A stretch of 55,744 nt of DNA from Rhizorhapis sp. SPR117 (lineage in GTDB: Bacteria > Pseudomonadota > Alphaproteobacteria > Sphingomonadales > Sphingomonadaceae): the NCBI RefSeq assembly GCF_021742065.1, contig NZ_JAKKIE010000027.1, positions 1-55,744 on the forward strand. Direction: 5' to 3'. The translations under genes were made by a program, and so were the position numbers. Shown one piece after another: positions 17,975-47,925 of this stretch. Every line of letters starts with the position of its first letter. Within the stretch, counting starts at the first letter, position 1. The notes under the pieces were generated by a model. It was given only the letters and a program-made list of their open reading frames with translations, was not told where the DNA came from and did no database searches.

Positions 17975-18226
17975 ACCGCCTTTCGGCGATCTTGTTCGAT
18001 GACTTCTGGTCCCCGACATTTCCTTGTTCTGCTGATGTTTTTCGTCCTCGCGGCGAAGCTGTTTTTCGCCGCTAACAGCGGAAGTGCGTGGGGTTTTTGC
18101 GATTTGTTAAGAGGTGAGGTTAAGAGCGTCCTAACATGTGACCCGTATTCCGGAGACAGCTTTGCGATTGGTCTGAAAGCGGATGAACCTGCATCCGTTG
18201 GGATCGTGAAGCCCGGGAGACACCCC

Positions 18227-20209
18227 ATGGCACTCATCACGGTTTCATCATCAGCCGCGCTGGTGAACGCAGTCAAGAACGCTGCCGACGGCGACGTCAT
18301 TCAACTGGAAGGCGGAAATTACGGCAAGGTTTCGTTGAGCGGCATCCATTTCGCCAACGGCATCGCTATCACGTCGGCCGATGCGGATCATCCGGCAGTT
18401 CTGACCGGGTTGAAGGTCACGGGCAGTTCGGGGCTGGATTTCGATCATATCGAATTCGCGCTCGACCCGGCGGATAAATATTTTCCGATCACGGTCGGTT
18501 CCTCTTCGGATGTGCATTTTTCCAATCTCTACGTGCACGGCCTGATCGACGGGGACCCGTCCATCGAAGCCATGGCCATGATGATCCGCAACAGTTCCGA
18601 TGTCAGCGTGACCGATTCAAAGTTTCAGGAACTGCATCACGCCGTCAATTTCCTCGACAGCGATCACATCACCATTTCGGGCAACAGCTTTCAGACGATC
18701 CGCAGTGATGGCGTTCGCGGGGGCGGGACCAGCGATCTGGTGATTTCCGACAATTATTTCACCGATTTCCATCCGGTCGGCGCCGATCATCCCGACGCCA
18801 TCCAGCTATGGACGACGAATACGACCGAATCCACCCGCAACGTCACCATTACCGGCAATGTTATCGAACGTGGCGATGGCGGCATTATCCAGGGTATTTT
18901 CCTGCGTGACCAGAGCGGCGGCAATGTGCCCTATGAACATGTGACGATCAGCGACAATATCGTACTGGGCGGCATGTATAACGGGATTTCGGTCGGTAAT
19001 ACGAACGGGCTGATCATGACCGGCAACACTGTTGGCGCTTATGCCGATCAGAAGAGCTGGCTGCGGATCGAAAACAGCACGGCGGTTGAATTGACCGGCA
19101 ATGCGGCATCGGCGTTCATCCTGAACAATGATGCCTTTATCGCCAATCACGGCAACAGCACGACCGGCGCGATCAGCGGCACCGGAGAAGCCGCGTTGAA
19201 AGCATGGCTCGACACGCATCCCAACCTGCTCGACGACCTGCCCCATGACCTGATCGAATATCATTACCCCGCATATGATGCCGGCAAGGTTGTTGCGGAC
19301 ATGGCAGCGGCCTGCGATCAAAATGTCATCGGGACTGACGGTGCGGACAGACTATATGTCGATAGCGCGGGCGCGACACACATCATGGGCGGCGCGGGAA
19401 ATGACGTGCTGAACGGCGGTGCGGCGTCTTGTCTTCGTGCCAACCTGCTTGAAGGCGGCATGGGCGATGATATCTACGTCATCAACAACGCGCTCGATCA
19501 TGTGGTTGAGGCTGCGGGCGCAGGAATCGACGAGGTACAGTCGCGGGTGGACTTCACGCTGGGCGAGAATGTTGAAAATCTGCGTCTGCAAGGCAGTGCG
19601 GTTTCGGGAACGGGTAACGGGCTCGCCAATGTCATTCGTGGAAATGATGCGGCTAATGTCCTGAAGGGTCTTGGTGGCGACGATCTCATCTATGGCGGCG
19701 GCGGAAATGACAGCATCGATGGCGGGACCGGGAATGACCGGCTCTATGGCGATGCTGGCAAGGACGTCATCCACAGCGGCGCCGGTGATGACCTGATCTA
19801 CGGCGGGGATGGCGACGATATCCTCTATGGCGATGCGGGCAACGACCTGATCGAAGGCGGCATGGGCAGCGACCGTTTATATGGCGGAGCGGGGGTCGAC
19901 CAGTTTTCCTATCGGCCCGAACATCTGCTTTCGGCGGGTGCGGGCATGGACATTATCGCTGATTTTTCATCCGCACAGGGCGACAAGATCCTGTTGGCCA
20001 TGCTGGATGCTGATAGCCACACAGCGGCCAATGATAAATTCAGCTTCATCGGCACGGACCAGTTTACAGGCGAAGCAGGGCAATTGCGCTATGCCCTTGC
20101 GGGTGGCGATGCTTATGTCTGCGGCGATGTGAACGGTGATGGTATGGCAGACTTCACCATTTGCGTTGCAGGCGTTACCTCGCTCGGGTCAGGTGACTTC
20201 AGCCTGTAA
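18227..20209 (+). CDS. RTX protein with right-handed beta-helix domain
   Basis: A 660-residue protein beginning MALITVSSSAALVNAVKNAADG (ATG 18227, GGGAGA upstream). The in-frame extension to 17999 does not fit family N-termini. Residues 1-310 form a right-handed parallel beta-helix with many N-x-[FI]-T-x-F/GN coils and a HPDAIQLW segment, as in polysaccharide lyases and AlgE-type epimerases. The C-terminal part has glycine-rich calcium-binding nonapeptides (GGAGNDVLNGG, GGDGDDILYGDAGND and others) and no N-terminal signal peptide, which fits type I secretion. It probably trims or epimerises the secreted polymer. The catalytic class is not determined. Confidence 0.88.
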   Translation: MALITVSSSAALVNAVKNAADGDVIQLEGGNYGKVSLSGIHFANGIAITSADADHPAVLTGLKVTGSSGLDFDHIEFALDPADKYFPITVGSSSDVHFSNLYVHGLIDGDPSIEAMAMMIRNSSDVSVTDSKFQELHHAVNFLDSDHITISGNSFQTIRSDGVRGGGTSDLVISDNYFTDFHPVGADHPDAIQLWTTNTTESTRNVTITGNVIERGDGGIIQGIFLRDQSGGNVPYEHVTISDNIVLGGMYNGISVGNTNGLIMTGNTVGAYADQKSWLRIENSTAVELTGNAASAFILNNDAFIANHGNSTTGAISGTGEAALKAWLDTHPNLLDDLPHDLIEYHYPAYDAGKVVADMAAACDQNVIGTDGADRLYVDSAGATHIMGGAGNDVLNGGAASCLRANLLEGGMGDDIYVINNALDHVVEAAGAGIDEVQSRVDFTLGENVENLRLQGSAVSGTGNGLANVIRGNDAANVLKGLGGDDLIYGGGGNDSIDGGTGNDRLYGDAGKDVIHSGAGDDLIYGGDGDDILYGDAGNDLIEGGMGSDRLYGGAGVDQFSYRPEHLLSAGAGMDIIADFSSAQGDKILLAMLDADSHTAANDKFSFIGTDQFTGEAGQLRYALAGGDAYVCGDVNGDGMADFTICVAGVTSLGSGDFSL

Positions 20210-22243: not shown

Positions 22244-22305
22244 GGTGAGGGAAGTCGTGCCCGCTTTGGGCGGGAAAAGGCATAGCCAATAAGGAGGCAT
22301 TGAAT

Positions 22306-23379
22306 TTGTACTGGTTCAAATTCCTCAAAGGGAAGAAACCCGGACGCGATCACGATTTTGTCGAGGTCATCCCGGATGACGCTGTCTCGCCGTTTCGGGC
22401 ATCCTCTCATCTGCGCCACAAGCGGATCAGCCACTTGCCACGGTTTCGGGGAAGCGCCCGCGATCAGCTTCACGAAAGCGGAGGAGGGCAATTTGCGGGC
22501 ATGCGGCAGAAATTCCGACATGCCTTCACGCCATCCCAGCCGGTGATCCACAAGGACCGCTTCGCCGGTCGCGCCGATGCGCTGGGCAAGCTGATCAGGG
22601 GGATAGAGGACCAGCGGCTGCACCCGATCCTTTACGGCGACCGGGGTATCGGCAAGACGTCGTTGCTGCATATCCTGGCCGATACCGCGCGGGAGGCGGG
22701 CTATGCCGTGCTTTACCATAGCTGCGATGCGGATACGCATTTCGACGAAATGTTCCGTTCGGTGCTGGCGCAGATTCCGCAGCTTTATCATGGCGGCGTA
22801 ACACCGACCCATGATCCCGTCGAAACCGGCGCCAGCCTGTTGGATATGGCGCCGCCAACGGCCACGCTTTCGCCACGCCACGTCACCGATCTGCTGGCTT
22901 CGGTCGTGGGGATAAGGGTCATCGTCCTGCTGGACGAATTCGACCGCGCCACGTCCAGCCAGTTTCGCCGGAGCGTGGCCGAACTGATCAAGAACCTGTC
23001 CGACCGATCCGCGCGGGTGCAATTGGTGGTGGCGGGCGTTGCGGCCAATTTTACCGAGTTGATCGAACATATCCCCTCCATCCGCCGCAATATCCTGAAT
23101 TTGGAACTGCCGCGCATGACCGATGCCGAAATAGACGAAATGATGCAGATTGGCGCGCAGGCAAGCGGACTTGGCTTTGATGAAACGGCGTGCATGCATA
23201 TTCGGACTATTGCCGATGGATCGCCCTATATCGCTGCGCTGTTGGCTCATCATGCCGGACTTGCCGCCATTGAGGAAGAGGTCGCTATGGTATCGCCCGG
23301 CCATGTGGCAATAGCGATTGAGGCGGCGTCTGATGAACTGGGGTCACATATCCGCAAACGCAATCTGGCGCAGGTCTGA
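22306..23379 (+). CDS. AAA-type ATPase of the EPS locus
   Basis: A 357-residue P-loop ATPase. The start is probably TTG 22306, 8 bases after AAGGAGG; TTG 22300 lies too close to that site. Motifs: Walker A GDRGIGKTS (about residue 110), Walker B VIVLLDEFD (about 205), then a sensor-like VVAGVAANFTEL and a C-terminal helical lid. The fold resembles the ORC/Cdc6-like or STAND-like ATPases of the AAA_16 group. The N-terminal 80 residues are basic and unrelated to anything I recognise. There are no membrane helices. It is probably an accessory of EPS assembly or sorting in the same transcript; the exact role is unknown. Confidence 0.8.
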   Translation: MYWFKFLKGKKPGRDHDFVEVIPDDAVSPFRASSHLRHKRISHLPRFRGSARDQLHESGGGQFAGMRQKFRHAFTPSQPVIHKDRFAGRADALGKLIRGIEDQRLHPILYGDRGIGKTSLLHILADTAREAGYAVLYHSCDADTHFDEMFRSVLAQIPQLYHGGVTPTHDPVETGASLLDMAPPTATLSPRHVTDLLASVVGIRVIVLLDEFDRATSSQFRRSVAELIKNLSDRSARVQLVVAGVAANFTELIEHIPSIRRNILNLELPRMTDAEIDEMMQIGAQASGLGFDETACMHIRTIADGSPYIAALLAHHAGLAAIEEEVAMVSPGHVAIAIEAASDELGSHIRKRNLAQV

Positions 23380-23449: not shown

Positions 23450-26032
23450 ATGACCTTCGCCAGCAGGCTGGAAGAATTCGACCGCGATATTGCGCTCATC
23501 GGCGACGATGGGGCAGTGCTTTCCTATGCCGATCTGGCGGCCCGCGCGGACGCATTCGCGGTGGAGCATCTGGCCTCACCTGGGACGGGCAAGCGGCTGG
23601 TGCTGCTGCAGATGCGCAACGATATAGTCAGTGTGGTCCGCTATCTGGGTGCGTTGCGGGCCGGATATGCGGTCCTGCTGACAGGCGATGATTTTACCGG
23701 CAAGGGCGAGCGATTGATCGAACGCTATCGCCCGGACATATGTATTTCCGCCTCTGGCAGCATAGCGCAGATGGCTGGCGCAGAACCTGTGCACCCCGAT
23801 CTGGCGCTGTGCCTGTCCACATCGGGATCGACGGGAACGACCAAGCTGGTGCGGTTGTCGGCAGAGGCCATCGATGCGAATGCGCAATCGATCGCGGACT
23901 ATCTGGACCTGCAACCGGGCGAACGGGCGATCACGACATTGCCGCTGCATTACAGCTATGGCCTGTCGGTGTTGCATTCGCATCTGACGTGCGGAGCCGC
24001 CGTCATCGTGACGGAACGGAGCCTGACAGATCCCGACTTCTGGGCGCTTTTTCAGCGTGAGGGCGCGACCGGCCTTGCCGGGGTGCCGCATAGTTTCGAA
24101 CTGCTCGATACGCTGGGTTTTGCCGATATGGAACTGCCCAGCTTGCGCACGGTGATGCAGGCGGGCGGGCGGCTGTCGCCTGATGCGGTGCGGCGCTATG
24201 GAGCATGGGCGCTTGGCAGCGGCCGCCGCATGTTCGTCATGTACGGCCAGACCGAGGCCGCGCCGCGCATGGCCTATCTGCCGCCAGAGCGATTGCTGGA
24301 GCATGCGGATTGCATCGGTGTGCCGGTGCCGGGCGGGACATTTGCGCTGCTGGGTGAAGACGGGCGGACGCTTGTTGGCGACGGCGTGACTGGTGAGCTT
24401 GTTTATCGCGGTCCCAATGTGATGATGGGCTATGCCTTCGACCGGGGGGATTTGGCCAAGGGGCGGGAGGTCGAAGCACTGGCGACGGGTGATCTGGCGG
24501 AACGGCGTGGCGATCTTTATCGCATTGTCGGTCGCAAGAGCCGTTTCTGCAAGCCGTTTGGCTTGCGGATCGGCCTGGACGATGTGGAGGCCGCGTTGGC
24601 GCGCAAGGGCGTGACGGCAGTGGTCGCCGGCAATGACGATGTGATAGCCGTCGCCTGTCAGGGCAAGATGGATGGCGAAGCGATAGGGCAGGAACTGGCG
24701 CGGGAATTCGAACTGCCTGCGGCGCTATTCGATGTTGCTGTGATGTCGGCATTGCCGAGGCTTTCGTCGGGTAAAACCGATTATCACAGGGTTTTGCAAG
24801 CGGCATTGGCGCGGCGGCAGGCACGCATCCCTGTGGTTGAGGGCGAGAGTATTGCCGGGACATTTGGCGCGCTGCTTAACCGGCCAGAGGTTGCTGCCAG
24901 CGACAGTTTCGTGACTTTGGAGGGAGACAGCCTGTCCTATGTCGCGGTGGCGAGTGCGCTGGAGCAGCGATTGGGGTATTTGCCCGAAGGATGGGAAAAT
25001 CTGACCGTGGCGCAAATCGATGCGCTGGCGCCCCGCACAGCAGCGACGAGACAGGGGCTGAAGCCCTATGATTCGGAAATGCTGCTTCGAGGGCTGGCTA
25101 TCACGGGCGTAGTCGCCAATCATGCGAGCGTGGATACGGCTTGGCATGTGGCGGGCGGGGCGGATGTGTTGATGCTGCTTGTCGGTTTCAATCTGGCGCG
25201 GTTCAATTTCGGCAGGCTGATCGGTGGCCAGTCGTTCGATGTCCTGCTGTCCGTCATCAGGCGGATCATATTGCCCTATTGCCTTATCCTGTGGGCTTAT
25301 GCCCTGTTTTACAAAGGCATTTCGGTCAGTTCCTTCCTGCTGGTCAGCAATTTCGAGGGGCGGTTTCAATCGTTCCTGACGCCCTATTGGTTCATGGAGG
25401 CGCTGTTCCAGTGCATGATCGTTCTGGCGCTGTTGTTCCGTCTGACAGCGGTTCGACAGGCAGCCGCATCCGATCCTTATATTTTCGGGCTATGGTTTTT
25501 GGGCGCTACGGTGGCGTTGAAGGCCGCAGCGTTTGCGATTTTCCATCATGACCGCCTGCAGAACATGACGCCGGATGCGGTATTGCCGCTTATCGCGTGC
25601 GGATGGCTGATTTTCTTTGCAAGGACGCCGGGGCGCAAGGTGCTGGCGCTGGTAGTCGCGCTCGGCTTTACGGCATTGCATGTTGCGGTTCCGGCGATGG
25701 GTGGCTGGGATTATGCGAGTGTCGGGCAATATCGGCTGATCTGGCTGCTGGCGGCAATCATCGCCCTGCTTTATGTGCCACGCATTTCCCTGCCGCCCCT
25801 GCTGGCCAAGGGGGTCAGTGCCGTTGCCGCCGCCAGTTTCACGATCTATCTGGTGCACGTCCTGCCAGTGCATGTGATGAAATTTCAGCTGCACGTGGAT
25901 GATGCGCCGCTGATCGTTGCGGTAGCAATGGCGGCGGGAATGGCGGTTCACGCGATACGGCCACGCCGCCTGATTGGCAGGATGGCGGAGCGGATCAATA
26001 TGCGCAAAGCCGCCATGGCGACGATCGATTGA
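23450..26032 (+). CDS. Adenylation-carrier-acyltransferase fusion (ANL-PCP-AT3)
   Basis: An 860-residue three-part protein. Residues 1-460 are an adenylate-forming enzyme with core motif LSTSGSTGTTKLV (about 122-134), FVMYGQTEAAPRM, a GELVYRGPNVMMGY region, and the C-terminal catalytic lysine in RLSSGKTDY (Lys442). Residues 465-530 form an acyl/peptidyl carrier domain with the phosphopantetheine motif GDSLS (Ser494). Residues 545-845 are an acyltransferase-3 membrane domain with about ten helices. The arrangement implies activation of a carboxylic acid by ATP, loading on the built-in carrier and transfer across the membrane, analogous to DltA-DltC-DltB but in one chain. Start ATG 23450 is the domain-consistent one; its ribosome site is weak. 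Confidence 0.88.
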   Translation: MTFASRLEEFDRDIALIGDDGAVLSYADLAARADAFAVEHLASPGTGKRLVLLQMRNDIVSVVRYLGALRAGYAVLLTGDDFTGKGERLIERYRPDICISASGSIAQMAGAEPVHPDLALCLSTSGSTGTTKLVRLSAEAIDANAQSIADYLDLQPGERAITTLPLHYSYGLSVLHSHLTCGAAVIVTERSLTDPDFWALFQREGATGLAGVPHSFELLDTLGFADMELPSLRTVMQAGGRLSPDAVRRYGAWALGSGRRMFVMYGQTEAAPRMAYLPPERLLEHADCIGVPVPGGTFALLGEDGRTLVGDGVTGELVYRGPNVMMGYAFDRGDLAKGREVEALATGDLAERRGDLYRIVGRKSRFCKPFGLRIGLDDVEAALARKGVTAVVAGNDDVIAVACQGKMDGEAIGQELAREFELPAALFDVAVMSALPRLSSGKTDYHRVLQAALARRQARIPVVEGESIAGTFGALLNRPEVAASDSFVTLEGDSLSYVAVASALEQRLGYLPEGWENLTVAQIDALAPRTAATRQGLKPYDSEMLLRGLAITGVVANHASVDTAWHVAGGADVLMLLVGFNLARFNFGRLIGGQSFDVLLSVIRRIILPYCLILWAYALFYKGISVSSFLLVSNFEGRFQSFLTPYWFMEALFQCMIVLALLFRLTAVRQAAASDPYIFGLWFLGATVALKAAAFAIFHHDRLQNMTPDAVLPLIACGWLIFFARTPGRKVLALVVALGFTALHVAVPAMGGWDYASVGQYRLIWLLAAIIALLYVPRISLPPLLAKGVSAVAAASFTIYLVHVLPVHVMKFQLHVDDAPLIVAVAMAAGMAVHAIRPRRLIGRMAERINMRKAAMATID

Positions 26033-27111
26033 TGCGTTCCGGCTTCCTTGGTTTGAAAAGCGAAAGCGATCGTTTGCTGCGCCTTGATTCGCTGCGGTTT
26101 CTGGCTGCCGTTATGGTGGTGGTCTATCATTTTCGGAACCAGTGGACGTTCGCGTCGGGGCCGGGGTGGAAAATGACGCAGTTCGGCAACATGACCTTTG
26201 CGGTCGATCTGTTCTTCATCATTTCAGGGATCGTCATAACTTTCGTCTATGAAGACAGGCTGGATTATCGGTCCTTTCTGAAACGGCGATTCGCGCGGTT
26301 GGCGCCGCTGCACTACGCTACGTTCCTGTTCTATTTTCTGGCCGGATTTCTGGCGTTGCGGGCAGGATATGATTTCTGGGAACTGTGGAAATATCGGCCC
26401 GAATGCGCGCTGCCGCACTTGCTGTTTCTGAATGCCCACGGCCTTTGCGACAGCCATAGTTTCAATCATGTAAGCTGGTCCATCGGCGCGGAGATGACGG
26501 TTTATCTGTTGTTCCCGCTGTTGCTCAGGCTGATGGGCGTGCATCGCGCGCTGCCCGGCCTTGTGGCGCTGGGGTGCATCATGGTGCTGGGCATGGCGGA
26601 ACCGTGGTTGCCCGGCGATCTGCCCTGGCACAGGCTGAGCCATGATCTGGGCATTGTGCGTGCCATTCCGGCTTTCCTGTTCGGGATGAGCCTGTGGGCC
26701 TATCGGCGCGAGTTGGGGCGGTTGCCCTTTGCAGATGCTTTTCTGGTCGGGTTGATGCTGTCGTTCGCAGGCGCTGTACTGACAGAGGCGGGGCGCGGAA
26801 CGATGGTCGCGCTGACCTATGCCATTGCGGCGGTGGCGCTGGCAGCGGATCAGGGCGGCAAGAAGCGGAGTTTGCCCACGCTGATCGCGCCCTTGGGGAT
26901 GCTGACCTATGGCATCTATATGCTGCACCCGCTGGTGCGGACTGTCGGATTTCCGGTGCTGACCGCGAGCGGGCTTGACGGGAATGCGGCGATTGCGATC
27001 TGCGGCCTGTTGGTCCTGCCGCTGGCCTATATGTCCTATTTCTGGTTCGAAAATCCGGCGCGGCGCTGGTTGTCCCATATTCGCTTGCGTCCCACCCCCG
27101 TTACGGCCTGA
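26032..27111 (+). CDS. Acyltransferase-3 family membrane protein
   Basis: A 359-residue integral membrane protein whose ATG overlaps the stop of the fusion gene (TGATG), so the two are coupled. The signature is RLDSLRFLAAVMVVVYHFR with the R-x10-H pair, followed by VDLFFIISGIVITFVYED and RRFARLAPLHYATF. The ending APLGMLTYGIYMLHPLVR and FWFENPARRW is typical of OafA/ExoZ-type O-acyltransferases. It may receive the same acyl group as its upstream partner or use acetyl-CoA. Confidence 0.9.
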   Translation: MRSGFLGLKSESDRLLRLDSLRFLAAVMVVVYHFRNQWTFASGPGWKMTQFGNMTFAVDLFFIISGIVITFVYEDRLDYRSFLKRRFARLAPLHYATFLFYFLAGFLALRAGYDFWELWKYRPECALPHLLFLNAHGLCDSHSFNHVSWSIGAEMTVYLLFPLLLRLMGVHRALPGLVALGCIMVLGMAEPWLPGDLPWHRLSHDLGIVRAIPAFLFGMSLWAYRRELGRLPFADAFLVGLMLSFAGAVLTEAGRGTMVALTYAIAAVALAADQGGKKRSLPTLIAPLGMLTYGIYMLHPLVRTVGFPVLTASGLDGNAAIAICGLLVLPLAYMSYFWFENPARRWLSHIRLRPTPVTA

Positions 27112-28270: not shown

Positions 28271-29778
28271 TCGCCCCGACCGGGCGTTTGCGAACTATCC
28301 TGATTTTCCTGATGGCGGCGTTGATCGCCATGGCGGTGCGCGGGGCCGGGATCGGTGACATCGTCGCGCATGGGGATGAGCAGTTTTACCTGCTGGTGGG
28401 CGACCGGATGCTGCACTGGGGGGCGATACCCTATGTCGACATATGGGATCGCAAGCCGATTGGCCTGTTCCTGCTCTATGCCGGGATCAGGATGCTCGGC
28501 GGTGATGGGATCGTGCAGTATCAGCTTGTGGCGATGCTGGCGGTCGCGCTGACCAGTGGTATCATGGCGGTGTGGATTGCGCGCTTTTCCGGATGGCCGG
28601 GGGCGGTCGCCGGGGTGATGCTGTATAACGGCCTGCTGGTCAGTCATCTGGGCTTTGGCGGGCAGGCGGAGGTTTTCCTTAACCTGCTGATCGTGGCGGC
28701 TGGTTGGGTGGCGCATGGGTTGCTGTTGTCCTCGCCCTCATTCCGGCGGCTGGCCGTGGTGGGCGGCGGCGCGATGTTGCTGTGCGGACTGGCGATGCAG
28801 GTGAAACCGACGGCGTTGCTGCCGGGCATCTTTATTGGGCTGGCGTTGGTTTGGCGGGCATGGCGGGCAAGGCTTGATTGGCGGAAAATTGCCGGATTGG
28901 GTGTGCTGTGGATCGGTATGGCGCTGTTGCCGACGCTGTTGGTCATCCTTACCTATTCGGGGCTTGGGCAGATCGACGCATGGCTGTTCGCCAATGTGCT
29001 TTCGATATTCGACAAGGCGCCTGACCAGCCGGGCGCGGTGGCGCGGCGGATTGCCGACACCATGCGTGAATTCGGGCGGCCTTTCGCCATTGTCAGCATC
29101 GTGGCGGCGGGGCAGTGCGTCGTCCGGCGCGACCTGTCATTATCGCGGTCGAGCCTGTTCCTGCTGGGATGGTTGGTGTCGGGCATCGCGGCCTTTGCCG
29201 TGCTGAGCGCAGCCTATCCGCATTATGCTTTGGTGATGGCGCCCATGGGTTGCCTGATCGCGGGCTATGCCGCGCGGCGCAACCTGGTCGGGTATCTGAT
29301 GCTGGGTTATTGCCTGTATGTGTCGCTGAACAACATGGATATGTATGAGCAGCGGTTGCGGGACAATGCGGTTGCTGCCCCGCAGATACGGGATATGGCC
29401 AGAGCGATTGCGCCGCATGTGGGCAAGGACCGGTGCCTTTATGTCTATCATGGGCCGGTTGTGCTCTATACGCTGACGAAGGCGTGTATTCCGACAAGCT
29501 TTGCCTTTCCCAACCATCTGTCTATCAGCACCGAGGCGTCGGGGCTGGGCGTTGATACTGTTGCAGAGGTGCAGCGGATTCTGGCCGCGCGCCCCTCCGT
29601 CATCGTCGATGGTGCGTTCGGGTTTCATCGGCCCAACGTGAAAACGCAGCATCTGGTTCATGCGGCGCTGTTGCGGGATTATCGCCCGGTTGCGGTGGTG
29701 AAGGATGGCAAAGGCAGGACGACCGCGACGGCCTATGTCCTTCAGGCGGCCAGGGGCGCGAGCACGCGGTTCAAATAG
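28267..29778 (+). CDS. GT-C membrane glycosyltransferase (ArnT/GT39-like)
   Basis: A 503-residue protein from ATG 28267, which overlaps the stop of the GT2-GtrA gene. The first periplasmic loop has DEQFYLLVGDRMLHWGAIPYVDIWDRKPIG, with the acidic residues expected for GT-C catalysis. About ten membrane helices follow, then a C-terminal soluble part (from about 385) with GKDRCLYVYHGPVVLY. It would take a sugar from the lipid carrier made by the preceding enzyme and attach it in the periplasm. It overlaps the convergent glycosyltransferase gene by 37 bases. Confidence 0.85.
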   Translation: MIAPTGRLRTILIFLMAALIAMAVRGAGIGDIVAHGDEQFYLLVGDRMLHWGAIPYVDIWDRKPIGLFLLYAGIRMLGGDGIVQYQLVAMLAVALTSGIMAVWIARFSGWPGAVAGVMLYNGLLVSHLGFGGQAEVFLNLLIVAAGWVAHGLLLSSPSFRRLAVVGGGAMLLCGLAMQVKPTALLPGIFIGLALVWRAWRARLDWRKIAGLGVLWIGMALLPTLLVILTYSGLGQIDAWLFANVLSIFDKAPDQPGAVARRIADTMREFGRPFAIVSIVAAGQCVVRRDLSLSRSSLFLLGWLVSGIAAFAVLSAAYPHYALVMAPMGCLIAGYAARRNLVGYLMLGYCLYVSLNNMDMYEQRLRDNAVAAPQIRDMARAIAPHVGKDRCLYVYHGPVVLYTLTKACIPTSFAFPNHLSISTEASGLGVDTVAEVQRILAARPSVIVDGAFGFHRPNVKTQHLVHAALLRDYRPVAVVKDGKGRTTATAYVLQAARGASTRFK

Positions 29779-30755
29779 GCGATGAGTTCGGCCGGGTCCG
29801 TCGTTGCCATGCGGGGGGTGGCAGTGCGAGCCGCGACAAGCGCGCTTTGCAATTCTTTGGTTGTGTTGGCGGACCAGATCAGGCCACGGGCGACAAAGGC
29901 GTCGGTGATTTCGGCCTGATGATTGTCATAATGTTCGCCCCGTTCGAACAGACGGGGCATGGAGATGACCCGGCATCCGGCACGCAAGGCCGTTATCAGC
30001 GATCCGCTGCCGCCATGGCAGATGACGATGTCGGCATCGCGGAGCAATTGCTGCACCTTTTTAAAGGGCAATGTCTCCACAACTGTCACGCCCTCCATCG
30101 GGCGAGGCTTCCGCGCGCCGGAACCGATTTGCAGCACAATATGTTCGGGGATATCACCCGACGTCTTCAATTCCAGGACGGTATCGACCAGCCGGTCAAA
30201 GGGCAGGGTCGCACCCACCGTGGCAAACAGAAGGGGTTGCTTTTCCGGGCGGTCCCCATCGAGCAGTTTGAGAGGGTCGAATGTATGCGTGCGCGGCCAG
30301 TAACCGGCCAGCGCTTTTGACTGAACGATGCGGTGATGGGCGAGTGGTGCAGCGATCCGGGCAAAGAGGGAGGGCCGTTCGAACCGGGCAAAGGAATCGA
30401 TAAGGATGATCTGCGCGCCCATCAGCCGCGCCCAGAACATAGCGAAAAACATTGCGCCTGCGCCGGTGGTGATCAGAACCGTGGGACGCTCCCGCAGAAT
30501 GATGGCCGCCGACCGCACGCAATTGCGAAGGGCGTTCCAGGCCATGCGGAAGGGCGCGCCCAGCCGGGCCTGACCGACGGCGACATGGGGCACGAAGAGA
30601 CAGCGATGCTGTTCAGCCAGACTTTTGCCCAACGCGGTGTCCTCGGTAACGAAAAAAGCGTCGCGGTCGCGCCAGACCGGCTCCAGGTCGAGGAGTTGGC
30701 GAACATGCCCGCCGCCTGATCCAGCCAGGCAGATTTTAGAGGCGCCATGCATCAT
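29742..30755 (-). CDS. Alg14/Alg13-type glycosyltransferase (possible glucuronosyltransferase)
   Basis: A 337-residue GT-B enzyme. The N-terminal half starts KICLAGSGGGHVRQLLDL and contains ITTGAGAMFFAMFWARLMGAQ, as in the membrane-anchoring Alg14/PssD type. The C-terminal half starts PLLFATVGATLPFDRLVD and contains the donor-binding DADIVICHGGSGSLITALRAG, as in Alg13/PssE or MurG. One chain holding both halves is the arrangement of sphingan beta-1,4-glucuronosyltransferases such as SpsK/GelK. With ugd in the window, UDP-glucuronate is a reasonable donor, by inference. It is monocistronic, divergent from the export operon. The start may be either of two adjacent ATGs. Confidence 0.85.
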   Translation of the reverse strand: MMHGASKICLAGSGGGHVRQLLDLEPVWRDRDAFFVTEDTALGKSLAEQHRCLFVPHVAVGQARLGAPFRMAWNALRNCVRSAAIILRERPTVLITTGAGAMFFAMFWARLMGAQIILIDSFARFERPSLFARIAAPLAHHRIVQSKALAGYWPRTHTFDPLKLLDGDRPEKQPLLFATVGATLPFDRLVDTVLELKTSGDIPEHIVLQIGSGARKPRPMEGVTVVETLPFKKVQQLLRDADIVICHGGSGSLITALRAGCRVISMPRLFERGEHYDNHQAEITDAFVARGLIWSANTTKELQSALVAARTATPRMATTDPAELIAYLNRVLAPLAA

Positions 30756-38488: not shown

Positions 38489-39361
38489 GTGGCGCAAATC
38501 GCCGCATCAGGGCCATGGCGCATGGCGCGTCCGGGAAGCGGATGGTTCATGCTTTTTGGATTGGCGGCGCTGGTTTTACCGACGCTGGTTTCACTGGCGC
38601 GGCTTGCATGGTCGACAGAGGCAGGCGCGCATGGGCCGATCGTGCTGGCGACCGGGCTTTGGCTGTTCTGGCGGCGCTGGCCGGAATTGATGGAGATGCG
38701 GCGACCCGGCAATAGCGCCCTGACGGTGGCGGCCTTTCTTGGCATGTTGCCCTTTTATATTTTCGGGCGCGCCTATGATTTTCTGTTCATCGAGGCTGGC
38801 GCATTGTTCGGGGCCTTGTGCGTGTTGTTCTATGGCCGTTTTGGCGGCGCGGCGATGTGTCGGCACTGGTTCCTTCTTGTGTATATGGCGTTTCTGGTTC
38901 AGCCGCCCGGCTGGGCCATGGATAGTCTGACCGCGCCCCTGAAAGCGTTCGTGTCGGCGGCATCGAGCGATTTCATGCGCGCACTGGGATTCCCCGTCTA
39001 TCGGGAAGGGGTGACGCTTTATATCTCGCAATATCAATTGCTGGTGGAGGACGCCTGTTCGGGGCTGAACAGTCTGGTCGGGCTGACGTCTATCAGTCTG
39101 TTCTACATCTATGTGTTGCGAGAGACGGGCTGGCGTTATTCGTTGCTGCTCACCGGCCTGATCGTGCCAGTGGCGGTGTTGGCCAATATCGTGCGGATCA
39201 GCATGCTGGTGCTTTTGACCTATTATTTCGGGGATTCGGTCGTGCAGGGGTTTCTGCATTTCGCGCCGGGATTTCTGCTGTTCGCCTTGTCGCTTGCTCT
39301 GATATTCGGGATCGATGCGGGCTTGGGCAGGCTGTTGGGTTTGCGGGAGCGGCGATTGTGA
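38489..39361 (+). CDS. xrtV: Exosortase (EpsH-type, probably class V)
   Basis: A 290-residue polytopic membrane protease/transpeptidase if started at GTG 38489; ATG 38522 is an equally possible start. The catalytic triad is visible: Cys190 in EDACSGLNSL, Arg236 in ANIVRI, His257 in QGFLHFAPGF. Eight or so membrane helices surround it. Exosortases cut PEP-CTERM-like sorting tails and hand the protein to an EPS-linked anchor. The class V call rests on the sphingomonad setting and the small accessory protein, not on a model match. No sorting-tail substrate is encoded in this window. Confidence 0.88.
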   Translation: MAQIAASGPWRMARPGSGWFMLFGLAALVLPTLVSLARLAWSTEAGAHGPIVLATGLWLFWRRWPELMEMRRPGNSALTVAAFLGMLPFYIFGRAYDFLFIEAGALFGALCVLFYGRFGGAAMCRHWFLLVYMAFLVQPPGWAMDSLTAPLKAFVSAASSDFMRALGFPVYREGVTLYISQYQLLVEDACSGLNSLVGLTSISLFYIYVLRETGWRYSLLLTGLIVPVAVLANIVRISMLVLLTYYFGDSVVQGFLHFAPGFLLFALSLALIFGIDAGLGRLLGLRERRL

Positions 39362-43225: not shown

Positions 43226-44529
43226 CGGCGTCGTCGGTTGCGGAGGCATTGTCCTGTTTGTCCGATGTCGAGATTCAGCAGATTTTAAGCGAGCTTGATC
43301 CGCGTCACCTGCCGGGATTGAGGCATGAGTGGAATTTCTGGGGGCGCGCGAGCCAGTTACCGCCGCGGGGCGATTGGCGGGTCTGGCTGATGATGGCTGG
43401 GCGCGGGTTCGGAAAGACGCGGGCGGGTGCCGAATGGGTGCGTTCGATTGCTGAAACGGACGGTGCGGCACGGATCGCATTGGTCGGAGCGAGCCTGCAT
43501 GAAGCGCGGTCCGTCATGGTGGAGGGAGAGAGCGGTTTGCTGGCCATCGCGCCGGAGGGCGAGCGGCCGATCTATGCGCCTTCGTTGCGGCGGTTGGTGT
43601 GGCGATCGGGCGCACAGGCGATGCTGTATGGCGCGGCGGAGGGTGAAAGTCTGCGCGGGCCGCAGCATAGCCATGGCTGGGCCGATGAAATCGCCAAATG
43701 GCCCGGTGGAAACGACGCCTGGGACAATTTGATGATGGGGATGCGATTGGGGTCACAGCCGCGCATCGTTGCGACGACTACACCGCGACCGGTGCCGTTG
43801 ATCCGGCGGCTGGTGCGCAAAGATGGGGTGATCGTGACGCGCGGGCGCACGGTTGAGAATATGGGAAACCTGCCAGGTACTTTTCTGGCCGCGATGGAGG
43901 CGAATTATAAAGGTACGCGATTGGGGCGGCAGGAACTGGACGGGGAACTGATCGAGGAATTGGACGGTGCGTTATGGCGGCGGGACTTGCTGGAGCGGCA
44001 ACGGGTGCGGATGGCGCCGCAGGTGGCGCGCATGGTCGTCGCGGTCGATCCGCCGGCCTCTGCCCATGGGGATGCATGCGGGATCGTCGCGGTGGCGCTG
44101 GGTACGGATGGGCGGGCGTATGTGATGGCCGACGCCACGGTGTCGGGCGTGGGGCCGGAAGGGTGGGCGCGGGCCGTGGCGCAGGCGGCGATGGTCCACA
44201 ATGCCGACCGGGCGGTGGCAGAGGCGAATAATGGCGGGGCGATGGTGGAAAGCGTGCTGCGCGCCGCCGACCTGACGCTGCCGCTGCGGCTGGTCCATGC
44301 ATCGCGGGGGAAAGTGGCGCGGGCCGAGCCGGTGGCGGCGCTGTACGAGGCCGGGCGGGCGTTCCATTGCGGCGCGTTTCCCGAGCTGGAGGACGAGATG
44401 TGCGGATTGCTGGTTGGTGGCGCTTATGAGGGGCCGGGCCGGTCGCCGGATCGCGCGGACGCACTGGTGTGGGCGATGACGGAATTGATGCTGGGTGTGC
44501 GTGGTGAGGTGCGGGTGCGGGGGATGTAG
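43222..44529 (+). CDS. GTA/phage terminase large subunit (g2-like)
   Basis: A 435-residue DNA-packaging ATPase/nuclease. Walker A is GRGFGKT (61-67) and Walker B is HGWADEIAKW with Asp155 and Glu156. The C-terminal RNase-H-like nuclease has VAVDPPASAHGDACGIV and VAEANNGGAMVE. It is the motor that fills the capsid head. The start overlaps the intact-frame end of the g1-like gene. Its length fits the GTA and HK97-type enzymes. Confidence 0.95.
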   Translation: MTASSVAEALSCLSDVEIQQILSELDPRHLPGLRHEWNFWGRASQLPPRGDWRVWLMMAGRGFGKTRAGAEWVRSIAETDGAARIALVGASLHEARSVMVEGESGLLAIAPEGERPIYAPSLRRLVWRSGAQAMLYGAAEGESLRGPQHSHGWADEIAKWPGGNDAWDNLMMGMRLGSQPRIVATTTPRPVPLIRRLVRKDGVIVTRGRTVENMGNLPGTFLAAMEANYKGTRLGRQELDGELIEELDGALWRRDLLERQRVRMAPQVARMVVAVDPPASAHGDACGIVAVALGTDGRAYVMADATVSGVGPEGWARAVAQAAMVHNADRAVAEANNGGAMVESVLRAADLTLPLRLVHASRGKVARAEPVAALYEAGRAFHCGAFPELEDEMCGLLVGGAYEGPGRSPDRADALVWAMTELMLGVRGEVRVRGM

Positions 44530-44551
44530 CCTGTGCGTTATCTGTAGGGTG

Positions 44552-44622
44552 GGAACCCCCTCTCCAATTACGACTAGGCCTTCGGCCAAGTCTCCATATC
44601 CTCCCCCCGCCGGGGGGAGGAA
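44552..44622. repeat. GTA-cluster palindromic repeat, copy 1
   Basis: A repeat unit reading CCCCCTCTCCAA, then CGACTAGGCC/GGCCAAGTCT, then a hairpin CCTCCCCCC-GCC-GGGGGGAGG-like at 44600-44620. It fills the gap between terminase and portal; its purine-rich end lies just before the portal ribosome site. Related copies are at 45813, 46701 and 51619. Confidence 0.8.
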
Positions 44623-44637
44623 GATAGGGAGCATTAC

Positions 44638-45774
44638 ATGAAATTGTTCGGAAAGAAGGCCGCTGAGGCGTCTCAGCGGCCGGTTTTGTCGCGTGGGTGG
44701 TTTGGGTGGCTGGGTGCGCCTTTGGGGGAGTGGCCGGCCAGTTATGAGGGGCAGGTGAAGGCGGCGGTGCTGGGTAATCCGGTGGCGCAGCGGGCGGTTC
44801 GGCTGGTGAGCGAGGCGGTGGGTGGCGCAGCTTTACTGGCAGAGGCGGGTGCGCAGGCGGACCGGGAGCGGGCGCTGGCGTTGATCGGTGCGCGGTCGGC
44901 GGGGCAGGGGCTGGTCGAAACGTTGGCAGTGCATTTGCTGTTGCATGGCAATGCCTATGTGCAGGTTGCATTGGGGGCGGATGGAGCGGTGGCCGAATTG
45001 TTCGCACTGCGCCCCGAACGGGTGAGTGTGGAGGCCGATGCGCGAGGGTGGCCAATGGCCTATCTGTACCGCGTTGGCGATACTGTGATGCGGCTGGTCA
45101 GCGAGGATGCGGCGGGGCGCACGGCGGTTATTCATATCAAGAATCTGCATCCGCTGGACGATCATTACGGGCTGGGCTGCGTGGGGGCTGCGGCTGGCGC
45201 GGTGGCGATCCATAATGCGGCGACGGTGTGGAACAAGGCGTTGCTGGACAATGCGGCGCGGCCTTCGGGGGCTTTGGTTTATGATCCGGGTGAGGCGGGG
45301 GCGGCTTTGTCAGGGGAGCAGTATGACCGGTTGAAGGCGGAGATGGAGGCGGCGTTTGCGGGCGCGGCCAATGCGGGGCGGCCCATGTTGCTGGAGGGCG
45401 GCCTGAAGTGGCAGGCGATGAGTTTGACGCCCGCCGACATGGACTTCGTGGGTTTGAAGGCAGCGGCGGCGCGGGAGATTGCATTGGCATTCGGGGTGCC
45501 GCCGATGCTGATGGGGCTGCCCGGCGACAATGCTTACGCCAATTATCGGGAGGCGAACAAGGCGCTGTGGCGGCAGACGATTTTGCCGCTGTCCGAGAAG
45601 ATATTGGGCGGGATTGGGCAGGGGCTTGGTGCGTGGATGCCGGGGGTCAGGCTGTCGGTGGATCTGAACAGGGTTTCGGCTTTGGCGGAGGAGCGTGGGA
45701 GCCTGTGGGACCGGGTGAGTGCTGCGGATTTTCTGACGCGGGATGAGAAGCGGGCGATTCTGGGCGTGGGGTGA
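44638..45774 (+). CDS. HK97-family portal protein (g3-like)
   Basis: A 378-residue portal that forms the ring through which DNA enters the capsid. Family features are ASYEGQVKAAVLGNPVAQRAVRLVSEAV-type N-terminal helices, LLLHGNAYVQVALGADG, GLGCVGAAAGAVAIHNAATVWNKALLDN, and the C-terminal GVPPMLMGLPGDNAYANYREANKALW. GGGAG lies about 8 bases upstream of the ATG, directly after a palindromic repeat. Confidence 0.93.
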   Translation: MKLFGKKAAEASQRPVLSRGWFGWLGAPLGEWPASYEGQVKAAVLGNPVAQRAVRLVSEAVGGAALLAEAGAQADRERALALIGARSAGQGLVETLAVHLLLHGNAYVQVALGADGAVAELFALRPERVSVEADARGWPMAYLYRVGDTVMRLVSEDAAGRTAVIHIKNLHPLDDHYGLGCVGAAAGAVAIHNAATVWNKALLDNAARPSGALVYDPGEAGAALSGEQYDRLKAEMEAAFAGAANAGRPMLLEGGLKWQAMSLTPADMDFVGLKAAAAREIALAFGVPPMLMGLPGDNAYANYREANKALWRQTILPLSEKILGGIGQGLGAWMPGVRLSVDLNRVSALAEERGSLWDRVSAADFLTRDEKRAILGVG

Positions 45775-45812
45775 GGAGGCGGCTTTATGCCGCACGCTTC
45801 CGTTGGAAGCGC

Positions 45813-45894
45813 TCCCCCCTCACCCAGCTATGACTAGGCGGCATAGCCGCCAAGTCTTCGCATCCCTCTCCCCTTCCGGGGCGAGGGCTTTTTG
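45813..45894. repeat. GTA-cluster palindromic repeat, copy 2 (terminator-like)
   Basis: CCCCCCTCACCCAGCTATGACTAGGC precursor-type unit with a GGCGGCATAGCCGCC segment, then the hairpin CCCTCTCCCC-TTCC-GGGGCGAGGG followed by CTTTTT. It has the form of an intrinsic terminator yet lies between portal and the next cluster gene, 14 bases before its ATG. Confidence 0.8.
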
Positions 45895-45907
45895 TGTGGA
45901 GTTTCCC

Positions 45908-46219
45908 ATGAACGATAGTGACATGCTGATCCGGCTGGTGGGGCAGGCGGAGGGTGAGGGCGCGGATCTGGTGATGATCCGCGCCCTTGTTGAAGAGGCG
46001 AGCGAGTTGGGGGCGGGGCGCGCCCTGGCGCGGCTGGGGTTAGCTGATGCGGGGGCGGAAAAGGATGTGCGGGAGTTGCGCGAGCTGCTCGGCGCATGGC
46101 GCGATGCGAAGACGGCGGCGCGCAACGCTGTGGTCGGGTGGATCGTGCGCGGGGTGTTGGCGCTGGTGCTGATGGCGGTGGCGGTCAAGGTTGGGGTATT
46201 TGCCATGGTTAGGGGGTGA
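45908..46219 (+). CDS. DUF6127 family small protein in GTA cluster
   Basis: A 103-residue protein from ATG 45908 (TGGAG upstream). The N-terminal 70 residues are helical and acidic (LIRLVGQAEGEGADLVMIRALVEEASELGAGRAL). It ends with one membrane helix (WIVRGVLALVLMAVAVKVGVFAMV). It fits the small DUF6127 protein found between portal and protease in sphingomonad clusters. Function unknown; the membrane helix is unusual for a structural gene. Confidence 0.72.
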   Translation: MNDSDMLIRLVGQAEGEGADLVMIRALVEEASELGAGRALARLGLADAGAEKDVRELRELLGAWRDAKTAARNAVVGWIVRGVLALVLMAVAVKVGVFAMVRG

Positions 46220-46221
46220 GG

Positions 46222-46680
46222 ATGGGTGACGAAAAAGCCTTGAGCGATGGCAGGCCCTCCCCCAGCCCCTCCCGCAAGCGGGAGGGGAGTGTGCGGTTCG
46301 CTGGCTATGCTGCGGTGTTCGACCGGGTGGATAGGGGCGGCGATGTGGTGCGGCGGGGGGCCTTTGTCGGGGTGATGGGAAAGGCTGTGCCCTTGTTGTG
46401 GCAGCATGCGCCGGACAAGCCGATCGGCGTGATCGAGCATGTAAGCGAGGACGCACGGGGGTTGCGGGTGATCGGGCGATTGTCGGGACGGACGGCGGCG
46501 GGACGGGAGGCGGCGGCGATGCTGAAGGACGGGGCGCTGGATGGCCTGTCCTTTGGCTATCGCGTGCGGGAGGCGGGCGATGGGCGGCCACGGGAATTGC
46601 GGGCGCTGGATCTGGTGGAGGTGAGTCTGGTGACTTTTCCGATGCAGCCGCTGGCGCGGGTGCATGCGGTGGAGGGGTAG
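46222..46680 (+). CDS. HK97-family prohead protease (g4-like)
   Basis: A 152-residue capsid-maturation serine protease. VRFAGYAAVFDRVDRGGDVVRRGAF opens the domain; the catalytic histidine is in LLWQHAPDKPIG (His62) and the serine in LDGLSFGYRV (Ser110); it ends DLVEVSLVTFPMQPLARV. ATG 46222 follows AGGGGGTGAGG. Residues 11-22 (RPSPSPSRKREG) are encoded by an inserted palindromic repeat, so the N-terminus is longer than usual. Confidence 0.9.
   Translation: MGDEKALSDGRPSPSPSRKREGSVRFAGYAAVFDRVDRGGDVVRRGAFVGVMGKAVPLLWQHAPDKPIGVIEHVSEDARGLRVIGRLSGRTAAGREAAAMLKDGALDGLSFGYRVREAGDGRPRELRALDLVEVSLVTFPMQPLARVHAVEG
46253..46290. repeat. Palindromic repeat inside the prohead protease gene
   Basis: CCCCTCCCGC (46266-46275) and GCGGGAGGGG (46278-46287) form a perfect 10-bp stem with a 2-base spacer, flanked by CCCTCCCCCAGC. 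It is translated in frame as part of the protease N-terminus, with no frameshift. Confidence 0.85.
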
Positions 46681-46700
46681 AGCGTTATCGAGGGGGCGCT

Positions 46701-46780
46701 GCCCCCTCACCCAACTGCGCCTGGGCAACACGTTGCCAAGGCTTCGTATCCCTCTCCCCGCTGGGGCGAGGGTTTTTTGT
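46701..46780. repeat. GTA-cluster palindromic repeat, copy 3 (terminator-like)
   Basis: CCCCCTCACCCAACTGCGCCTGGGC with a GGCAACACGTTGCC hairpin, then CCCTCTCCCC-GCT-GGGGCGAGGG and TTTTTT. It is again shaped like an intrinsic terminator, placed 18 bases before the major capsid ATG. Confidence 0.8.
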
Positions 46781-46797
46781 GTGTGCGGGAGACGTTT

Positions 46798-47925
46798 ATG
46801 TATGAAGTGAAGGCGGACGGTCTGGAAGACAGCTTTGATGCGGTTCTTCAGGCGGAGAAGATTGCAACGCTGGAAGCCGATATGGCGGCGCTGAAAGGGC
46901 AGGTGGTTGCGGCGCAGAGGCCTGCGCTTGATGGGGTGAAGGCGTTGGCGGACGATCCGCAGCGAGCGGCGTTTGTCGATCGTTATCTGCGCAAGGGACT
47001 GGAAGCCGGAGTGGAGCTGAAAAGCTTTTCCGGGGCGAGCGGGGGCGAGGGCGGCTATGCGGTGCCGCGCGAGATCGACGCGGTGATCGATGCGGCATTG
47101 AAGGGCATTTCGCCCATCCGCGCCATTGCCAATGTGGTGCAGACCGGATCGGCGGGATATCGCAAGCTGGTGACGAGCGGGGGTGCGCCTTCTGGTTGGG
47201 CCAGCGAAACGGGGGCACGGGCCGAGACGGGGACGCCGACATTCCATGAAATCGTGCCGCCATCGGGTGAGTTGTTCGCCAATCCGGCGGCTTCTCAGGC
47301 AATGCTCGACGATGCGCAGTTCGATGTCGAGGGCTGGCTTGCCAGTGAAATCGCCATGGAGTTCGCGCAGGCCGAAGGGGCGGCGTTCGTCAATGGTACC
47401 GGGACCAATCAGCCCAAGGGCTTTTTAACCGGCACGGTGACGAATGAGGCGGATGCCGTGCGGGCGTTCGGGTCGTTGCAATATGTGGCGTCGGGTGCGG
47501 CAGGGGCCTTTGCCGCGTCCAATCCGCAGGACAGGCTGATCGATCTGGTGCAGTCGTTGCGGGCGCCATACCGGCAGGGAGCGGCGTTCGTGATGAATTC
47601 GGCGACGTTGGCGCGCATTCGCAAGTTCAAGACGAGCGACGGGGCGTTCCTGTGGCAACCGGGTCTGGTGGCGGGTCAGCCGGACAGCCTGCTCGGTTAT
47701 CCGGTGGTGGAGGCAGAGGATATGCCCGATGTCGCCGCCGACAGTCTGTCGATTGCCTTTGGCAATTTCAGGGCTGGTTATGTGATTGCCGAGCGGTCCG
47801 CGACCAGCATCTTGCGTGACCCATTCACCAACAAGCCGTTCGTGCACTTCTATGCGGTCAAGCGCATTGGCGGGGCCGTGGCGAACAGCGAGGCGAGTAA
47901 ACTGATGAAGTTTGCTGCGAGCTAA
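46798..47925 (+). CDS. HK97-family major capsid protein (g5-like)
   Basis: A 375-residue capsid protein from ATG 46798 (GGGAG upstream). The N-terminal 60 residues form a coiled-coil delta domain normally removed by the prohead protease. The mature fold starts around KSFSGASGGEGGYAVPREIDAVIDAAL and includes PTFHEIVPPSGELFANPAASQAMLDDAQFD, ANPQDRLIDLVQSLRAPYRQGAAFVMN and GYPVVEAEDMPDVAADS. It packs about 4-5 kb heads in GTAs of this type. Confidence 0.95.
   Translation: MYEVKADGLEDSFDAVLQAEKIATLEADMAALKGQVVAAQRPALDGVKALADDPQRAAFVDRYLRKGLEAGVELKSFSGASGGEGGYAVPREIDAVIDAALKGISPIRAIANVVQTGSAGYRKLVTSGGAPSGWASETGARAETGTPTFHEIVPPSGELFANPAASQAMLDDAQFDVEGWLASEIAMEFAQAEGAAFVNGTGTNQPKGFLTGTVTNEADAVRAFGSLQYVASGAAGAFAASNPQDRLIDLVQSLRAPYRQGAAFVMNSATLARIRKFKTSDGAFLWQPGLVAGQPDSLLGYPVVEAEDMPDVAADSLSIAFGNFRAGYVIAERSATSILRDPFTNKPFVHFYAVKRIGGAVANSEASKLMKFAAS

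What the first reader, a model, noticed from the sequence alone, without database searches (positions are those of the whole stretch)
23450..26032. Single-chain adenylation, carrier and membrane acyltransferase: a one-protein analogue of the Dlt pathway
Seen: an ANL adenylation core (STSGSTG, Lys442), a carrier domain with GDSLS (Ser494) and an acyltransferase-3 membrane domain in one frame, translationally coupled to a second acyltransferase-3 gene. Known: DltA/DltC/DltB activate and export D-alanine as separate proteins; acyltransferase-3 enzymes usually use acyl-CoA. Inference: this protein would activate an organic acid with ATP and deliver it from a tethered phosphopantetheine directly through its own membrane domain to the EPS. 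Glyceryl, lactyl, hydroxybutyryl or aminoacyl groups are candidates; acetate is less likely, since acetyl-CoA is available. It could explain unusual acyl decorations of sphingan-like polymers.
Basis: partly seen in the sequence, partly recalled or inferred. Interest (0 to 1): 0.75.

Follow-up and report, generated by a model that had tools for sequence, protein, structure and literature searches.

The report
Self-loading membrane acyltransferase
One protein in this bacterial polysaccharide gene cluster appears to charge a small organic acid onto its own carrier arm and pass it through its own membrane domain, a conserved but apparently undescribed shortcut that would do in one chain what the Dlt route does with several proteins.

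Summary
Window 23450-26032 encodes 860 aa: adenylation (A), carrier (T) and acyltransferase-3 (AT3) domains in one frame, overlapping a second AT3 gene (TGATG). The A-domain lysine, carrier serine and AT3 Arg-x10-His are invariant in 121 aligned proteins. The modelled carrier matches solved PCP/ACP chains, the AT3 part HGSNAT.

New evidence supports carrier feeding. The fused AT3s lack two side chains of the acyl-CoA site (TMH2-Phe and first Arg of RxxR: 0 of 121 each, against 55 of 56 standalone AT3s) but keep the catalytic ones. Carrier and AT3 recur as a unit: as adjacent genes, doubled (A-T-AT3-T-AT3), and behind an NRPS module. In Pseudoduganella the same A-T front end is fused to SGNH beside an MBOAT gene. 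The amine-binding Asp is Ser, so an amino acid is unlikely.

Acid and acceptor are unknown; no activity was tested; 4 of 28 ordinary AT3s also lack RxxR. I call it a new variant of a known kind: it works like Dlt, with AT3 in place of DltB, but is not a Dlt member.

The parts
23450..26032 (+). A-T-AT3 gene, 860 aa
   Evidence: Pfam order AMP-binding, PP-binding, Acyl_transf_3; ATG start
23450..24814 (+). adenylation domain, residues 1-455
   Evidence: PF00501; structural matches to MenE 37.3, DltA 3e7w 36.7, VinN 36.3 (Z)
23816..23836 (+). STSGSTG phosphate loop, residues 123-129
24155..24157 (+). Met236, pocket position equivalent to GrsA 299; Thr in the other 120 of 121 rows
24773..24775 (+). 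catalytic Lys442
   Evidence: 121 of 121
24827..25045 (+). carrier domain, residues 460-532
24929..24931 (+). Ser494, predicted phosphopantetheine site
   Evidence: 121 of 121; first residue of predicted helix 494-508
25067..25957 (+). AT3 membrane domain, residues 540-836
25088..25123 (+). Arg547-x10-His558, AT3 TMH1 motif
   Evidence: 121 of 121
26032..27111 (+). second, standalone AT3 (359 aa) overlapping the first gene; keeps DxxR-x10-H and RxxR
   Evidence: Pfam 5.8e-31 (read from 26029); TGATG; motifs
22300..23379 (+). AAA/STAND-type ATPase upstream, conserved next door in L098
20499..21917 (+). EPS-initiating polyprenyl-phosphate sugar transferase (context)
   Evidence: TIGR03025 304.9 bits over the 295.55 cut-off
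29742..30755 (-). WelK-type glucuronosyltransferase (context: sphingan-like cluster)
   Evidence: NF046028 525 bits over the 400 cut-off

Best explanation
The protein is a self-loading transmembrane acyltransferase. Its cytoplasmic A domain adenylates a small organic acid without an amino group (inferred from the pocket) and loads it onto the phosphopantetheine of its own carrier domain (inferred from invariant Lys442 and Ser494). The carrier arm, not acyl-CoA, then enters the AT3 pore, where Arg547/His558 and the TMH9 tyrosine meet the thioester, and the acyl group is handed to an acceptor on the far side. In this window the acceptor is most likely the sphingan-like EPS or its lipid-linked repeat (inferred from synteny). 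The overlapping second AT3 keeps the usual acyl-CoA motifs and probably adds a second group, such as acetyl, from CoA. Shown: domain order, residue conservation, predicted folds, altered donor-site residues, recurring carrier+AT3 unit. Inferred: chemistry, direction, acid, acceptor.
For: Domains; invariant catalytic residues; carrier and AT3 folds. Fused AT3s lack TMH2-Phe (0 of 121; standalone 55 of 56, one gap) and the first TMH3 Arg (0 of 121; standalone 55 of 56, one gap), yet keep TMH1-Arg and TMH1-His (121 of 121), the second TMH3 Arg (117 of 121) and TMH9-Tyr (120 of 121). RxxR before Pro is found in none of 20 fused copies from loci (two near-identical pairs among them), and not in the two split AT3s or the second AT3s of P0016 and P0020; 24 of 28 standalone AT3 matches read from six genomes have it. 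Carrier+AT3 recurs as adjacent genes (L109, L110), as A-T-AT3-T-AT3 (P0016, P0020) and as C-A-T-AT3 (L099). The same A-T front end is fused to SGNH beside an MBOAT gene ending FIYFQF in L003. Ser at the Asp235 position. The second AT3 is adjacent in the window, L098, L102 and L009/L115, and 10 of its 51 hits share the longest-contig length with a fused hit: 9, one with the partial P0122 (0.3 expected).
Against: No activity, acyl product or topology was measured. Fused and control AT3s separate as clades, so the residue losses may be a single event and the counts are not independent. RxxR is also missing from 4 of 28 standalone AT3s, so its loss does not by itself prove a non-CoA donor. Three more diverged fused forms (L107, L009, L115 538) keep the TMH2-Phe and have Lys at the first Arg. 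Of the loci looked at, only L098 besides the window shows an EPS gene row. The review passages read argue that AT3 donors are acyl-CoA rather than ACP (PMC9558356). The carrier scores just under the Pfam cut-off. Foldseek alone gave no match below E 0.001 for the carrier-AT3 model.
Confidence: 0.65

Rival explanations
1. Same loading and membrane transfer, but the acceptor is not the EPS: a lipid, peptidoglycan, LPS, a glycoprotein or a small molecule.
For: Full-length relatives lie beside gatA/gatB (L099 by Pfam; L103, L105, L117 by clustering), a ketopantoate hydroxymethyltransferase gene (L102), or inside an iron/siderophore-type transport gene row in Kibdelosporangium (L130).
Against: The window and L098 keep the gene inside a long conserved EPS gene row, with a WelK-type transferase in the window.
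Confidence: 0.2
2. The A-T part only makes the acyl donor in the cytoplasm and the AT3 domain acts on the lipid-linked repeat before or during flipping, without carrying the acyl group across the membrane.
For: PrmO, an OafA-family enzyme of another Sphingomonas EPS, is proposed by its authors to acylate a lipid-linked intermediate (PMC11340318, passages).
Against: The predicted AT3 domain matches HGSNAT and GWT1, transmembrane acyl-transfer folds.
Confidence: 0.15
3. The A domain is an acyl-CoA ligase, the carrier is idle, and the AT3 domain takes free acyl-CoA as other AT3s do.
For: The A domain resembles acyl-CoA ligases in sequence and structure; the second TMH3 Arg is kept in 117 of 121; 4 of 28 ordinary AT3s lack RxxR as well.
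Against: Ser494 is invariant (121 of 121; 45 of 45 rows); two acyl-CoA-site side chains are lost; the carrier is duplicated together with the AT3 in P0016 and P0020.
Confidence: 0.1
4. A true D-alanine or glycine system moved to an AT3.
For: Functional parallel with Dlt; structural match of the A domain to DltA. PMC11253843 (passages) notes that the Asp is not strictly required (McyG has Val).
Against: The Asp that binds the amino group is Ser or Cys in 121 of 121.
Confidence: 0.05

Closest known systems
Dlt pathway (DltA, DltC, DltB, DltX, DltD)
   Same: ATP-dependent loading of an acid onto a carrier phosphopantetheine, then hand-over to a multi-span membrane acyltransferase that uses the carrier instead of CoA (PMC12148441 and PMC3783018, passages).
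   Different: One chain; AT3 in place of the MBOAT DltB; no SGNH part in the chain or in the adjacent genes scanned; no Asp for the amino group.
AT3 / TmAT acyltransferases (OafB, OatA, HGSNAT)
   Same: PF01757, Arg-x10-His, TMH9-Tyr, predicted TmAT fold.
   Different: N-terminal A-T fusion; lacks TMH2-Phe and the first Arg of RxxR. Fusions named in the passages read are SGNH, racemase and NRF domains.
NRPS-like A-T didomains (EntE-EntB fusion, McyG A-PCP)
   Same: A followed by a carrier, same predicted folds.
   Different: Followed by a membrane acyltransferase rather than a condensation, reductase or thioesterase domain.
MBOAT-SGNH pairs (PatA/PatB)
   Same: A Pseudoduganella relative (L003) pairs the same A-T front end with SGNH and an adjacent MBOAT ending FIYFQF, which fits the published FXYXXF shuttle motif.
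   Different: The window uses AT3; PatA uses acetyl-CoA.
Sanxan acyltransferases SsX, SsY, SsZ, SsI
   Same: Membrane acyltransferases of a Sphingomonas EPS (PMC5399355, passages).
   Different: Sequences not compared here; the authors call the acyl-addition mechanism unclear.

Membership tests
Dlt pathway | separate DltA ligase, DltC carrier, DltB MBOAT and DltD SGNH proteins | tested here: not met
   A, T and AT3 in one chain; no MBOAT or SGNH called among the window genes scanned with Pfam; not every window gene was scanned
Dlt pathway | A domain with Asp for the amino group | tested here: not met
   Ser169 at that position
Dlt pathway | carrier thioester as donor to the membrane acyltransferase | not testable with these tools
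   supported only indirectly
AT3 (PF01757) / TmAT | curated Pfam score | tested here: met
   41.9 bits over 31
AT3 (PF01757) / TmAT | R-x10-H in TMH1 | tested here: met
   121 of 121
AT3 (PF01757) / TmAT | RxxR in TMH3 and Phe in TMH2 | tested here: not met
   0 of 121 each; 4 of 28 ordinary AT3s also lack RxxR, so it is not strictly defining
AT3 (PF01757) / TmAT | TmAT fold | tested here: met
ANL / NRPS-like A-T | phosphate loop, catalytic Lys, carrier Ser | tested here: met
ANL / NRPS-like A-T | carrier fold | tested here: met
Sphingan EPS cluster | characteristic glycosyltransferase WelK | tested here: met
   NF046028 525 bits
Sphingan EPS cluster | tetrasaccharide backbone and acyl groups of the polymer | not testable with these tools
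   no chemistry available

The most novel reading that the evidence does not exclude
There is a carrier-fed branch of the AT3 superfamily, spread over Alpha-, Gamma- and Actinobacteria, that no longer takes acyl-CoA. A portable adenylation-carrier module charges one conserved hydroxy- or other non-amino acid and is plugged either into AT3 or, in Pseudoduganella/Massilia, into MBOAT-SGNH machinery. That fills the empty cell of the grid MBOAT/AT3 by CoA/carrier. In this window it could be the missing enzyme for glyceryl-type groups on sphingan-like polymers, with the coupled second AT3 adding acetyl.
Probability: 0.55. Interest if true: 0.85.

Novelty: new variant of a known kind. Interest (0 to 1): 0.72.

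Why it matters
AT3 enzymes decorate O-antigens, peptidoglycan and antibiotics and are described as acyl-CoA-dependent (passages read). A branch fed by its own carrier would explain how acids without a ready CoA pool reach the outside of the cell, give a single-gene tool for adding chosen acyl groups to polysaccharides, and supply a natural contrast for locating the CoA-binding contacts of AT3/HGSNAT-type proteins. It also makes the unexplained non-acetyl decorations of sphingan-type gums testable by one gene deletion.

Tried and rejected
EPS specificity of the family: rejected; copies lie beside gatA/gatB, beside MBOAT or in an iron-transport row. Aminoacyl donor: judged unlikely from the pocket. 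Substrate from the pocket: the code S-Y-S-[ST]-T-A-M-[AP]-R-K is shared by 146 of 166 rows (45 of those rows are locus copies with duplicates), which suggests one common acid, but the structure-known A domains aligned are too distant to name it; no pocket superposition was done. A diacid from invariant Arg273: not pursued, because the alignments do not settle it. The SDR/LuxE/LuxC genes beside stand-alone A domains gave no clear product. The AT3 domain alone as protein query gave one significant relative among 7995 scored, P0122, a 204-aa partial. The BLAST hit list came from a query file that held many proteins run together; it served only to mark gene positions and the search was redone. Three strand picks were wrong (L133, L152, L153); one search replaces it. 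The FxxxxG count of 23 includes one spurious match (L141). In the tree three rows were dropped (P0135, L101, L116 piece) and only some of the fused P rows were used. Literature searches of the held PMC library for an A-T-AT3 fusion or a carrier-fed AT3 (open-licence papers only) listed none that I recognised as such; for most papers only listings were seen. Searches for the enzyme of glyceryl groups gave no gene. Passages of PMC554113 proved irrelevant. The carrier motif LP-x-x-W was thought to be AT3-specific, but the SGNH forms have it or VP-x-x-W too.

Full report
Observation. Window 23450-26032 reads as one 860-aa chain with AMP-binding, PP-binding and Acyl_transf_3 domains in that order. 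The start codon is ATG 23450, and the stop overlaps the start of a second AT3 gene as TGATG.

Conservation. A protein search scored 7996 candidates; 5416 were significant and only the best 120 are listed (41-95% identical; 119 of 120 with both PF00501 and PF01757). In the alignment of the query and these 120, Lys442, Ser494, Arg547 and His558 are invariant. This listing is ranked by similarity to the query, so it favours full-length forms. Copies from loci gave 45 rows, which stand for 24 distinct genes by my count, since several were fetched twice. Lys442, Ser494 and Arg547 are kept in 45 of 45, His558 in 40 of 45. The five exceptions are L003, L004 and L005 and the duplicates of two of them; L003 was scanned and has an SGNH domain in place of AT3.

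Donor-site test. Published work places acyl-CoA along TMH1-3 and TMH9: an Arg and His in TMH1, a Phe in TMH2, RxxR in TMH3 and a Tyr in TMH9; F313 and R345 of HGSNAT reorient on acetyl-CoA binding (PMC12423673, passages and part 1 of section 6; PMC9833829, passages). I compared 121 fused AT3 domains with 56 standalone AT3s (51 hits, two window genes and three locus genes; gaps counted as misses). TMH2-Phe: 0 of 121 against 55 of 56. First Arg of RxxR: 0 of 121 against 55 of 56. Second Arg: 117 of 121 against 55 of 56. TMH1-Arg: 121 of 121 against 54 of 56. TMH1-His: 121 of 121 against 55 of 56. TMH9-Tyr: 120 of 121 against 54 of 56. RxxR before Pro is in none of 20 fused copies from loci, nor in the AT3s of two split systems or the second AT3s of P0016 and P0020. 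Among those 20, L107 and L009 keep the Phe and have Lys at the first Arg, as does the diverged S. solaris gene L115 538. As a wider control, 24 of 28 standalone AT3 matches read from six genomes have RxxR (one of them, L150, is the L098 second AT3 already in the first control). One search listed 36 rows: two of the 30 with a locus are fused genes, and six had no locus and were not read, three of these being fused genes. So the loss is unusual but not unique to carrier-fused forms. Because fused and control sets separate as clades, the counts are not independent events.

Carrier and AT3 travel together. In L109 and L110 an A-T gene is followed by a separate AT3 gene. The Pfam support there is uneven: the L110 AT3 scores 20.4 bits (under the cut-off) and the L109 carrier is not called, but both carriers show the GDS...LPxxW motif. 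P0016 and P0020 (1212 and 1226 aa) read as A-T-AT3-T-AT3; Pfam finds two PP-binding and two AT3 stretches in P0016. L099 has, beside an A-T-AT3, a condensation-A-T protein whose C-terminal part aligns to the AT3 with Arg and His kept, though Pfam does not call it. In L003 (Pseudoduganella) the front end is fused, through one hydrophobic segment, to an SGNH domain, and the next gene is an MBOAT ending FIYFQF; L004 and L005 (Massilia) cluster with both genes. The ending fits the FXYXXF shuttle motif (PMC12148441, passages). That paper states that DltB takes its acyl group from a carrier while other MBOAT/SGNH pathways evidently use acyl-CoA. The L003 pair therefore looks like a Dlt-Pat hybrid, and the window's protein like its AT3 counterpart.

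Substrate. The position that holds Asp235 in amino-acid-activating A domains is Ser in 120 and Cys in 1 of 121. The ten-position code is nearly uniform, S-Y-S-[ST]-T-A-M-[AP]-R-K in 146 of 166 rows, which suggests one common acid across the family. The window itself has Met in place of Thr at the 299 position, unlike the other 120 of 121; whether this is natural or a sequence error cannot be told. The review used for pocket positions notes that hydroxy-acid and keto-acid A domains also lack the Asp (PMC11253843, passages). Glycerate is attractive because some sphingans carry glyceryl and acetyl groups (recalled), but nothing here tests it.

Neighbourhood and spread. The window cluster has a polyprenyl-phosphate sugar transferase and a WelK-type glucuronosyltransferase over their curated cut-offs, and a pyruvyl-transferase-like gene and EpsE/EpsF-like proteins below theirs. 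L098 (G085, 67% identical) keeps the same gene row, including the second AT3 and the ATPase. Both genomes held for that genus, G001 and G085, have the gene. In a draw of 397 genomes from the family of G001, 22 have a match at E 1e-70 or better (two candidates scored per genome). By frame length and later calls I read these as 14 full-length forms (one with an internal stop, one at a contig edge), 2 split, 1 broken into two pieces and 5 with the A domain alone or unresolved. In a class-level draw 8 of 385 match, G085 again among them. At 14 other full-length loci where at least one neighbour was scanned (L002, L003, L006, L007, L008, L010, L099, L100, L102, L104, L105, L106, L125, L130) no EPS gene was called, though the surroundings were not scanned whole. 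Among them are places beside gatA/gatB (L099; L103, L105, L117 by clustering) and inside an iron/siderophore-type transport row in Kibdelosporangium (L130). The second AT3 recurs beside the fusion in L098, L102 and L009/L115. Ten of its 51 homologues share the longest-contig length with a fused hit, nine and one with the partial P0122, against 0.3 expected; equal length is not proof of the same contig.

Verdict. The architecture is real, widespread and conserved. Its best reading is a self-loading, carrier-fed AT3. It works like Dlt but fails two defining features of Dlt and is not filed there. It is an AT3/TmAT member by fold and core motif, with a modified donor site. Acid, acceptor and direction are inferences.

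Noticed in passing
L003:9989-14155: A-T domains fused through one hydrophobic segment to an SGNH domain, followed by an MBOAT gene ending FIYFQF: looks like DltA+DltC+DltD in one chain plus a DltB/PatA-like partner. L004 and L005 share both genes by clustering.
   Followed up: partly
L099:4504-8679: NRPS-like protein (condensation, adenylation with Asp at the amine position, carrier) with an AT3-like C-terminus, directly beside an A-T-AT3 gene.
   Followed up: partly
P0016 and P0020 (proteins, no locus): A-T-AT3-T-AT3 proteins of 1212 and 1226 aa: two carrier+AT3 units in one chain.
   Followed up: partly
L130:5907-14776: A-T-AT3 gene in Kibdelosporangium inside a row of iron/siderophore-type transport genes; possibly acts on a siderophore.
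   Followed up: no
L011-L067 and L111, L112: Stand-alone A domains with a nearly identical pocket code (mostly His at one position) beside SDR, LuxE and LuxC genes where these were scanned, in L111/L112 within a Wzx-type cluster.
   Followed up: partly
window 24155-24157: Met at a specificity-pocket position that is Thr in the other 120 of 121 aligned proteins.
   Followed up: partly
window 22300-23379: AAA/STAND-type ATPase in the EPS cluster, conserved in L098; recalls the ATPase PrmE needed for promonan (PMC11340318, passages), not compared by sequence.
   Followed up: no
window 38549-39361: Exosortase (EpsH family) gene at the end of the EPS region.
   Followed up: no
window 43258-47925: Phage-type terminase, portal and capsid genes.
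   Followed up: no
window 17999-20209: Right-handed beta-helix protein with RTX repeats beside the EPS genes.
   Followed up: no
L099, L103, L105, L117: The fused gene lies beside gatA/gatB in four genomes, in both orientations (Pfam in L099 and L105, clustering in the others).
   Followed up: no
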